From NCBI RefSeq assembly GCF_019636075.1, contig NZ_JAHBYG010000006.1, forward strand, positions 1-64,000: a stretch of DNA of 64,000 nt. The letters are read 5' to 3'. This stretch comes from Ferrovibrio sp. (GTDB lineage Bacteria > Pseudomonadota > Alphaproteobacteria > Ferrovibrionales > Ferrovibrionaceae). A program made the position numbers and the translations under genes. This document shows, one piece after another, positions 55,120 through 57,921 of this stretch; within the stretch, counting starts at the first letter, position 1, and each line of letters opens with the position of its first letter. The notes below the pieces were generated by a model. The model ran no database searches and was not told the origin of the DNA. It worked only from the letters and a program-made list of their open reading frames with translations.

Positions 55120-56102
55120 GCCGCAAGCTTGCCGCCAAGGCCGGGCTGTTGAAGCTGCCCATGGGCAAGACGCCCTATCCGCGCGATCTGAAAGGCTATG
55201 GCGCGCATCCGCCCGATCCGCGCTGGCCCGGCAATGCCAATGTGGCGGTGTCCTTCGTGGTGAATTTCGAAGAGGGCGGCGAGCGCAACATCCTGCATGG
55301 CGATGCGGAATCGGAAGTCTTTCTGCATGAAGTGCCGGGCGGCACGCCGCGCCGGCGCATGCGCGACGAACAGGTGGAATCGGTTTACGAATACGGCACC
55401 CGCGCCGGCTTCTGGCGCATCATGCGCCTGTTTCAGGAACGCCGGCTGAATTTCACCTCCTACGCCGTGGGCATGGCGGTGGCGCGCTATCCGGAAGCCG
55501 TGCGGGCGATGGTGGAGCAGGGCCACGAGATCGCCTCCCATGGCTGGCGCTGGATCGATTACAGCCGCGTGCCGATTGCCACCGAACGCGCCCATATGAA
55601 GCTGGCGATTGCCGCCATCGAACAGGCAGCCGGCGAACGCCCGGTGGGCTGGTATACCGGGCGGCTATCGTCCAACACCCGCAAGCTGGTGATCGAGGAG
55701 GGCGGCTTCCTTTACGATTCCGATGCCTACGACGACGACCTGCCTTACTGGGTGCCGGCTTCAGGCGCGGGCAAAGGCAAGCAGGGCGCGAAGAAATCGC
55801 ATCTGGTGATCCCCTATACGTTCGACAACAACGACATGAAATTCGCCACGCTCAACGGCCTCGGCACCGGGCAGGATTTCTACGATTACCTCAAGGATGC
55901 CTTCGATTGCCTCTACGACGAAGGCCGCCGCGGCGCGCCGAAGATGATGTCGGTGGGCCTGCATTGCCGGCTCGCCGGCCGCCCCGGCCGCGCCCAGGCG
56001 CTGGCGCGCTTCCTTGATTACATCCAGGCGCATGACAATGTGTGGATCTGCCGCCGCTGCGACATCGCCGAACATTGGCATCGCGTGCATCCGCCGAAGT
56101 GA
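55116..56102 (+). CDS. puuE: Allantoinase, polysaccharide-deacetylase fold
   Basis: A 328-residue NodB-fold allantoinase that opens allantoin to allantoate without the metal site of classical allantoinases. YPRDLKGYGAHPPDPRWPG, NFEEGGERNILHGDAESE and SHGWRWIDY are the PuuE signature segments; WYTGRLSSNTRKLVIEEGGFLYDSD follows the known enzyme. It is the third gene of the + strand ureide operon. Start ATG lies inside the stop of the M20 gene. Confidence 0.93.
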   Translation: MSRKLAAKAGLLKLPMGKTPYPRDLKGYGAHPPDPRWPGNANVAVSFVVNFEEGGERNILHGDAESEVFLHEVPGGTPRRRMRDEQVESVYEYGTRAGFWRIMRLFQERRLNFTSYAVGMAVARYPEAVRAMVEQGHEIASHGWRWIDYSRVPIATERAHMKLAIAAIEQAAGERPVGWYTGRLSSNTRKLVIEEGGFLYDSDAYDDDLPYWVPASGAGKGKQGAKKSHLVIPYTFDNNDMKFATLNGLGTGQDFYDYLKDAFDCLYDEGRRGAPKMMSVGLHCRLAGRPGRAQALARFLDYIQAHDNVWICRRCDIAEHWHRVHPPK

Positions 56103-56148
56103 TTTTCAGCCTGTCGGTGCGGGCTCAAACAAACAGGGAGACGCTATA

Positions 56149-56517
56149 ATGCTGCGCAAGATTCTGATTGTTGCCATGGCCGCGCTTTTGCAATGCGCCA
56201 GCCTGCCGATCTCGGCCTGGGCCGCCGGCGCGATTGCCGTGGTGGATGAGGAAGGCGCCGATCCCGCCGATATCGGCTATGGCGTGGGCTATGGCGAAAA
56301 CCGCGACGAAGCCGCCAAGGAAGCCATGGCCGAATGCCGCAAGGCCGGCAACAAGGGCTGCAAGATCGCCGTGCGCTTCGATACCTGCGGCGCCTATGCC
56401 GCCTCCAAAACCCATTTCGGTGTCGGCTGGGGCGAAAGCAAGGCCATCGCCAGCAGCAAAGCCCTGGCCGAATGCGGCGGCAGCTGCAAACTGGTCGTCG
56501 CCGATTGCGACGAGTAA
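56149..56517 (+). CDS. DUF4189-like secreted protein
   Basis: A 122-residue exported protein: signal peptide about residues 1-26 (ending SAWAA), then a DUF4189-type domain with GYGVGYGENRDEAAKEAMAECRKAGNKGCKI and a second repeat GVGWGESKAIASSKALAECGGSCKL, each with a Cys pair that could form disulfides. Function unknown. GGGAG precedes the ATG at 56149. It is followed by terminator-like palindromes and then by the AT-rich insertion. Confidence 0.75.
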   Translation: MLRKILIVAMAALLQCASLPISAWAAGAIAVVDEEGADPADIGYGVGYGENRDEAAKEAMAECRKAGNKGCKIAVRFDTCGAYAASKTHFGVGWGESKAIASSKALAECGGSCKLVVADCDE

Positions 56518-56572
56518 ACCGCAGGTTTCCGGGGCCTGGCAATCCGCCTGGCCCTGGGGGCGGCTGATGCAG

Positions 56573-56630
56573 CCCCAGAAAACACAAAAGCCGCGTCATG
56601 ACGCGGTTCTGCAATAATTGGAAAATTGGA
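56573..56630. repeat. Direct repeat, outer copy of the tRNA-Gly terminator region
   Basis: This copy holds CCCCAGAAAACACAAAAG, the palindrome CCGCGTC-AT-GACGCGG and, 11 bases later, GGAAAATTGGA. The same elements recur in the same order at 57490-57548 next to tRNA-Gly. On the (-) strand the hairpin followed by CTTTTGTGTTTT is a good terminator and lies just after the DUF4145-like gene. Confidence 0.85.
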
Positions 56631-56632
56631 AT

Positions 56633-57325
56633 TTAATTTGCCGGATCTATCTTGCTTAGATCGCTCTCCAATTGCTCAATTCTTGCTGGCAATACATATA
56701 AATAAGAAATCAAGTAACTGAGAAGTTCTACGATCTGACGGGCCACTGCTTCATCAGGCTCAAGTTCCATATCAAAGTGGGCGCCTAGATTTCCTCCACT
56801 CCGAATGGCGTGAGATAGCGCGCTTAAAGGTGCGGAGAGATCTTTTTCTTCTTTTGCGGCATCAATCAGTTTGGCAAGTGGCAAATTTCGTTTTTCTTCT
56901 GGAACTAAAAATTTAAAAATGCCTTCAAGTGTTCGTCGACCTGAAACAGCAGCCGCTGCATAAATACCGGCATTATAAGATTCAATCGTTGAGATTAGAG
57001 CTCGTCTAAGAGGTGATGGAATAAAATCTACCTCAGAGGGCTCTGGGAAGAAATTTTGAGGGCTGGGATGCATATAAATTTCAGCAGAGTGGATGGTTGC
57101 CACCCCACTGGTATTGATTGACCAAAAACCGACCTTTCCATTACAGGAAGGACAATTTCCGGCGGCCGATACTGAATTCAGATGTCCCCCTGTTGAAAAG
57201 CCGTACAGAGTGAAAATCACTTTCGCATTACATTTTGGGCATATAGCACTTACGGCTGCAGGTCGAATCAGTCTGCCACTTATCTCGCAGCCCCGAATTG
57301 CAGAGGGATCAATCTTCTGCATCAT
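56633..57325 (-). CDS. DUF4145-like protein, AT-rich, probably acquired
   Basis: A 230-residue protein. CPKCNAKVIFTLYG and CPSCNGKVGFWSI (about residues 24-70) give four Cys of a zinc ribbon; the helical part ALISTIESYNAGIYAAAAVSGRRTLEGIFKFL and LIDAAKEEKDLS is the DUF4145 pattern, a domain often found alone or in restriction and defence loci. Codon use is far richer in A and T than in any neighbour. The gene lies exactly between two direct repeats and its stop is two bases from the outer one. This fits horizontal gain; a defence role is only a possibility. Confidence 0.8.
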   Translation of the reverse strand: MMQKIDPSAIRGCEISGRLIRPAAVSAICPKCNAKVIFTLYGFSTGGHLNSVSAAGNCPSCNGKVGFWSINTSGVATIHSAEIYMHPSPQNFFPEPSEVDFIPSPLRRALISTIESYNAGIYAAAAVSGRRTLEGIFKFLVPEEKRNLPLAKLIDAAKEEKDLSAPLSALSHAIRSGGNLGAHFDMELEPDEAVARQIVELLSYLISYLYVLPARIEQLESDLSKIDPAN

Positions 57326-57489
57326 TTTTTCCCTGATTAACGATGTTTCCTTGATTACTTATAACGTTTTGATTGTGCATTTCAGGAAATTTATAAATAT
57401 AACTAGTTTTTCCGCCCGATTAAGTTGGTCTGTAACCGCCCGGTGACCACGGGCTCCCTGGCCCCGGTCAGGCTGCTCCCTGCATCAAC

Positions 57490-57548
57490 CCCCAGAAAAC
57501 ACAAAAGCCGCGTCGTGGACGCGGCTTTGAGATGTTCGGAAAATTGGA
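57490..57548. repeat. Direct repeat, tRNA-proximal copy with terminator
   Basis: The copy carries CCCCAGAAAACACAAAAG, CCGCGTC-GTG-GACGCGG-CTTT and GGAAAATTGGA, whose last four bases are the encoded CCA end and discriminator of tRNA-Gly. On the (-) strand the hairpin plus TTTTGTGTTTT is the tRNA-Gly terminator. Confidence 0.85.
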
Positions 57549-57619
57549 GCGGGCGATGAGATTCGAACTCACGACCCCAACCTTGGCAAGGTTGTGCTCT
57601 ACCCCTGAGCTACGCCCGC
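57545..57619 (-). tRNA. tRNA-Gly (anticodon GCC)
   Basis: Reading the (-) strand, GCGGGCG pairs with CGCCCGC in the acceptor stem, the D arm is GCTCAGGGGTAGAGC, the anticodon arm CAACC-TTGCCAA-GGTTG shows GCC, and the T arm has GTGAG-TTCGAAT-CTCAT. The CCA end is encoded (57545-57547). Confidence 0.97.
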
Positions 57620-57921
57620 TCGGCGGCAAGGACGGTCAAGCCGGCCCGTTGCAGCGCCGGACTATAGCGGCCGTTTTCCGCTTTGCAAGCGTCGGATGGC
57701 ACAAAAAAATCCGTTTTTATACCGGGGCTTGGCCGGGGTTGGGCTTGGGCATAGCCGGGCGGCTGGGGGCGGTGGCCCGGCTCGGGCGGGTTTAGGGCTT
57801 GCGCCTGCGGTCCGGGTCGAGTATCAGGATGCCGCCTCGCGCGCCGGCCCTGGGTTTATCCCGCAAGCCATGGCGCGCCGACCGGCCGGCCGGGCCCGCT
57901 TCTGCGCTGCCCAGCCCCCAG
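57620..57921. other. Gap between the two tRNA genes
   Basis: About 300 very GC-rich bases lie between tRNA-Gly and tRNA-Glu. Open frames here have no ribosome site or protein-like composition. A run of A with ATCC then GTTTTTATA at about 57703-57722 may belong to promoters of the tRNA-Gly gene. I see no further structure. Confidence 0.6.

What the first reader, a model, noticed from the sequence alone, without database searches (positions are those of the whole stretch)
56573..57619. AT-rich gene inserted between duplicated tRNA-Gly terminators
The DUF4145-like gene is the only clearly AT-rich gene in the window. It is bracketed by direct repeats of about 58 bases that contain the tRNA-Gly terminator hairpin and the last bases of the tRNA. 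The inserted segment is about 0.9 kb, too small for an integrase, so it may be a cassette moved in trans or the remnant of a larger island. Zinc-ribbon DUF4145 proteins turn up in defence loci.
Basis: partly seen in the sequence, partly recalled or inferred. Interest (0 to 1): 0.6.

Follow-up and report, generated by a model that had tools for sequence, protein, structure and literature searches.

The report
Small foreign gene cassette beside tRNA-Gly
A single foreign, probably phage-related gene sits in a site next to a glycine tRNA gene where related Ferrovibrio bacteria carry nothing, toxin or defence-like genes, or full integrating islands, so it is most likely the cut-down leftover of such an island.

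Summary
A 693-bp DUF4145 gene (44% GC; window mean 63%) lies between two copies, about 83-85% identical, of the tRNA-Gly(GCC) terminator plus the last four tRNA bases. The repeat occurs twice in the genome. The host is a Ferrovibrio-group alphaproteobacterium. In nine congeners the same side of the same tRNA is empty (four), or holds: a 13-kb island with integrase, primase and a defence-like kinase, flanked by terminator plus half-tRNA repeats; a 1.5-kb deaminase pair between tRNA repeats; a 0.78-kb HigBA toxin-antitoxin pair; and (two genomes) islands whose far end is a tRNA fragment, one beside an integrase. So it is a genus-wide integration hotspot. A 35-bp motif just inside the tRNA-proximal end matches the 13-kb island's end in register and no other site in the family, linking the 0.9-kb insert to integrase-bearing elements. 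The distal copy lacks the tRNA half, and the genome has no close relative of that integrase, so I favour a deletion relic (CIME-like) over an active trans-mobilised cassette. The cargo is a zinc-ribbon plus HEPN-superfamily protein, plausibly an antiphage or toxin RNase, untested. New member of a known kind.

The parts
57545..57619 (-). tRNA-Gly(GCC), integration target; its 3' end faces the insert
   Evidence: ARAGORN; the tRNA-Gly(-)/tRNA-Glu(+) pair is found at the site in 8 congeners
57490..57548 (-). Proximal repeat: tRNA-Gly terminator hairpin plus last 4 bases of the tRNA
   Evidence: terminator scan 57528-57504
57431..57465 (.). 35-bp element end (TGTAACCGCCCGGTGACCACGGGCTCCCTGGCCCC) shared in register with the 13-kb island of G003; absent from empty site and distal copy
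   Evidence: 0 of 5000 shuffles reach the score
56633..57325 (-). DUF4145 (HEPN superfamily) gene with N-terminal CxxC...CxxC zinc ribbon, 230 aa
   Evidence: phrog_1305 E=8e-22
56573..56630 (-). Distal repeat: terminator plus TCCA without any tRNA half; lies just 3' of the gene's stop codon and can act as its terminator
56149..56517 (+). DUF4189 gene between the deacetylase gene and the distal repeat; not found at the deacetylase locus of congeners

Best explanation
The insert is the relic of a tRNA-Gly-specific integrative element. An element with its own copy of the tRNA-Gly 3' part and terminator recombined into the tRNA, restoring the tRNA next to an element-borne terminator and displacing the host terminator to the far end (step shown by comparison in G003/G009, inferred here). 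Later deletion removed the integrase/replication module and the displaced tRNA half, up to the TCCA, leaving one tRNA-proximal cargo gene on the tRNA strand between the two terminators (inferred). The proximal terminator still ends tRNA-Gly transcription and the distal one ends the cargo gene (inferred from positions). The cargo is a zinc-ribbon plus HEPN-superfamily protein of a phage-borne family, most likely an RNase-type defence or addiction gene kept by selection (inferred).
For: Same site in a congener (G003) holds a 13-kb island (integrase, VapE-like primase/helicase, kinase, DUF3010) between a full tRNA and a distal terminator plus tRNA half, and G009 is the matching empty site: its terminator is identical to G003's displaced copy. 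The insert's tRNA-proximal 35 bp match that island's end in register, and the core motif occurs with no mismatch at no other place in 18 family genomes. G003's AT-rich cargo occupies the same tRNA-proximal place and strand. Two more congeners have distal tRNA fragments, one beside an integrase. Gene absent from the site in 9 of 9 congeners (one has a 26% relative elsewhere); in a class sample 4 of 384 other genomes have any relative. GC 0.44 against 0.63. No integrase in the insert and no close relative of G003's in the genome.
Against: No intermediate (DUF4145 plus integrase at this site) is known. G000's flanks are rearranged relative to congeners on both sides, so the distal copy cannot be checked against its own syntenic empty site. 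The shared 35-bp end could have been host sequence captured by G003's element. The distal copy may never have had a tRNA half if crossover was at the tRNA end. Most genomes are drafts.
Confidence: 0.6

Rival explanations
1. A genuine integrase-less mini-cassette: a roughly 0.92-kb circle (gene plus one terminator/tRNA-end att) inserted as such by an integrase supplied in trans by an element using the same tRNA.
For: Two other small integrase-less inserts at the same place in congeners: a 1.5-kb deaminase pair between 65-nt tRNA repeats and a 0.78-kb HigBA pair abutting the tRNA 3' end. Integrase-bearing elements share the site and, in G003, the 35-bp end. Insert is compact: promoter region, one gene, terminator.
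Against: Repeats diverged to about 83-85% and the distal one lacks the tRNA half; the G004 insert has no visible repeats; no helper integrase like G003's in this genome.
Confidence: 0.22
2. The repeat reflects local duplication of the terminator during the chromosomal rearrangement seen around this tRNA in G000, with the DUF4145 gene brought in by illegitimate or homologous recombination, not by site-specific integration.
For: Both flanks lack synteny with congeners; the deacetylase locus is elsewhere in relatives; the two G000 copies share a TC/GA stem extension not seen in the three copies of G003 and G009.
Against: Does not explain the element end shared with G003's island, or the repeated occupation of exactly this place in the genus.
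Confidence: 0.13
3. Native gene and terminator pair, with low GC by chance.
For: None beyond the intact reading frame.
Against: Absent from the site in all congeners, about 6 sd below local GC, a single-repeat empty site in G009.
Confidence: 0.02

Closest known systems
CIME (cis-mobilizable element; decayed ICE/IME keeping attL and attR)
   Same: Cargo at a tRNA site between att-like repeats, no integrase or transfer genes (definition in PMC5704250; Dehalococcoides ssrA islands without integration modules, PMC3146451)
   Different: Only 0.9 kb and one gene; distal att is truncated to the terminator plus 4 tRNA bases, so retained att function is doubtful; no accretion shown
tRNA-targeted genomic islands with tyrosine integrase (Islander type, PMC4383910)
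   Same: Target tRNA restored, displaced fragment at far end; seen for the G003 island at the same site
   Different: The G000 insert has no integrase and no tRNA fragment beyond 4 nt; the duplicated block is mostly the terminator
DUF4145/HEPN zinc-ribbon proteins (PF13643; PMC3710099; BxaP in PMC10799925)
   Same: DUF4145 match above cut-off, N-terminal Cys pairs, R...GN..H motif region conserved among relatives
   Different: Stand-alone gene without a restriction-modification or BREX partner beside it; activity unknown

Membership tests
CIME | lacks integrase and transfer genes | tested here: met
   only gene-like ORF of the insert is DUF4145
CIME | flanked by retained attL and attR | tested here: inconclusive
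   both repeats present, but the distal one lacks the tRNA half seen in the G003 island
CIME | derived by decay of an integrative element at the same site | tested here: inconclusive
   35-bp end shared with the G003 island supports it, but no intermediate is known and the decay itself is inferred
CIME | mobilised in cis by an adjacent element | not testable with these tools
   no adjacent element in this genome
tRNA-targeted genomic island (Islander type) | integrase gene within island | tested here: not met
tRNA-targeted genomic island (Islander type) | intact tRNA at one end, tRNA fragment at the other | tested here: not met
   only TCCA plus terminator at the distal end
DUF4145 (PF13643) | score above curated cut-off | tested here: met
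   29.1 against 23.1 bits
HEPN RNase | conserved R and H of the Rx4-6H motif | tested here: inconclusive
   R...G(N/D)..H conserved in 7 of 7 aligned proteins, but the R-H spacing is 7 residues (RSGGNLGAH), one more than Rx4-6H
HEPN RNase | four-helix HEPN fold | tested here: inconclusive
   single-sequence AlphaFold model mostly helical after residue 100 but pLDDT 44; a solved DUF4145 protein, 9y9c, matches the profile at 1.7e-10
known anti-phage defence system | match to a PADLOC model | tested here: not met

The most novel reading that the evidence does not exclude
The tRNA-Gly(GCC) 3' end in Ferrovibrio is an exchange site for sub-2-kb, integrase-less cassettes (DUF4145/HEPN, DCD-like plus cytidine deaminase, HigBA), each a minimal defence or addiction unit, mobilised in trans by integrases of resident or incoming satellites that share element ends and carry their own tRNA terminator.
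Probability: 0.15. Interest if true: 0.65.

Novelty: new member of a known kind. Interest (0 to 1): 0.42.

Why it matters
It describes a tRNA-Gly integration hotspot in a little-studied alphaproteobacterial genus, with empty, small and full-size states side by side, and gives a sequence link between a one-gene insert and an integrase-bearing island. I found no earlier description in the papers searched. That makes the question of whether tiny tRNA-linked defence cassettes are relics or are moved in trans testable. It also shows an element carrying the target tRNA's terminator, so target and cargo transcription could stay insulated.

Tried and rejected
Genome and viral contig scans with the protein found no relatives; the alignment was too diverse for another viral scan; phage records gave no tblastn hit, plasmids only Deinococcus and Cytobacillus. 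PADLOC and NCBIfam do not match the DUF4145 protein. AlphaFold on the single sequence was poor, so no fold search was run. The terminator repeat as a dispersed genomic repeat was rejected: two copies only. A degenerate tRNA half inside the DUF4145 3' end was rejected: score 12 against a shuffle 95% level of 16. The conserved left neighbour of congeners was sought in G000 and lies on another contig, so the left flank is rearranged. A first terminator comparison cut some copies short and was redone.

Full report
Observation. The gene at 56633-57325 (-) encodes a 230-aa DUF4145 protein. Its GC is 0.443 (GC3 0.34) against a 690-bp sliding mean of 0.630 (sd 0.031), and no other ORF of 150 aa or more in the window falls below 0.585. 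It is bracketed by direct repeats 56573-56630 and 57490-57548. The repeat is the tRNA-Gly terminator hairpin plus TCCA, the last four tRNA bases. It occurs only twice in the 4.0-Mb genome.

Host and site. The tRNA-Gly(-)/tRNA-Glu(+) pair is found together in eight congeners. On the 3' side of tRNA-Gly I find: G009, a single terminator with no insert; G007, G002 and G005, no evident insert; G003, 13 kb; G006, 1.5 kb; G004, 0.78 kb against the 97%-identical flanks of G007; G001 and G008, islands whose far end is a 47-nt tRNA fragment next to the conserved left neighbour gene. For G001 the tRNA and the fragment are on different contigs, and for G008 the tRNA itself was not recovered, so those two islands are inferred from their far ends.

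The intact relative. In G003 the island lies between a distal copy (terminator plus tRNA 3' half, to about the anticodon) and the full tRNA. Its distal terminator is identical to the single terminator of G009, and the left flank is the same, so the distal copy is the displaced host end and the proximal terminator came with the element. It encodes a tyrosine integrase, a VapE-like primase/helicase, a 1252-aa phage-family protein (phrog_18693), a Ser/Thr kinase related to PD-T4-6 and MADS kinases, and DUF3010. The two AT-rich cargo genes are tRNA-proximal, on the tRNA strand, as the DUF4145 gene is in G000.

The link. The 35 bp at 57431-57465 match the tRNA-proximal end of the G003 island, one base apart in register from the terminator; none of 5000 shuffles reached the score. 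The core motif has no mismatch-free copy elsewhere in 18 family genomes, and its 3-mismatch hits are no more common than in the reversed control. It is absent from the empty site and from the distal copy. So the 0.9-kb insert ends like an integrase-bearing element.

Relic or cassette. G000's distal copy stops at TCCA and has no tRNA half, and the genome has no close relative of the G003 integrase (best 34% over about 89 aa). I read this as a deletion relic. The trans-mobilised alternative keeps some weight because the G006 insert (DCD-like plus cytidine deaminase, between 65-nt tRNA repeats) and the G004 insert (HigBA) are also small and without integrase.

Complication. Left of the distal repeat, G000 has a core deacetylase locus that in congeners lies elsewhere (in G003, about 650 kb from the tRNA); the congeners' own left neighbour is on another G000 contig. 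The right flank is also not shared beyond tRNA-Glu. The site therefore lies at or near a rearrangement breakpoint, and a same-flank empty site could not be shown for G000 itself.

Cargo. DUF4145 belongs to the HEPN superfamily, mostly with a conserved RNase motif and sometimes fused to zinc ribbons (PMC3710099); a DUF4145-containing protein, BxaP, protects against T4 (PMC10799925). This protein has Cys pairs of a zinc ribbon and an R...GN..H motif conserved in seven of seven aligned proteins, with R-H spacing one longer than the published Rx4-6H. It matches the phage family phrog_1305 over nearly its whole length (E=8e-22) and a solved DUF4145 protein, 9y9c. Relatives are rare: four of 384 other genomes in a class sample. 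Antiphage or addiction function is inference.

Transcription. The distal terminator lies 3' of the gene's stop on the same strand, and the proximal one lies 3' of the tRNA, so each transcript has its own terminator. This is read from positions only.

Verdict. Real: most likely a relic of a tRNA-Gly-targeted element in a Ferrovibrio integration hotspot. New member of a known kind.

Noticed in passing
L032:8404-9950 (G006): 1.48-kb, 45% GC insert at the same tRNA-Gly between 65-nt tRNA repeats, encoding a dCTP-deaminase-like protein with a C-terminal membrane-like segment and a separate cytidine deaminase related to the anti-phage dCTP deaminase; possibly an undescribed two-gene defence unit.
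   Followed up: partly
L033:9202-9984 (G004): 0.78-kb HigB/HigA toxin-antitoxin insert abutting the tRNA-Gly 3' end, absent from the 97%-identical flanks of G007; about 31 bp of G007 sequence are replaced and no repeat is visible.
   Followed up: partly
L026:3761-16829 (G003): 13-kb satellite-like element with integrase, VapE-like primase, a 1252-aa protein (phrog_18693; weak PD-Lambda-4_A match), PD-T4-6/MADS-like kinase and DUF3010; it carries its own version of the tRNA-Gly terminator.
   Followed up: partly
window 56100-57620 and G000:C18:20181-21230: Chromosomal rearrangement breakpoint at the tRNA-Gly site: the left flank is a core locus that lies elsewhere in congeners, and the usual left neighbour is on another contig.
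   Followed up: partly
window 56149-56517: DUF4189 gene next to the distal repeat, not found after the deacetylase gene in congeners; may also be acquired.
   Followed up: no
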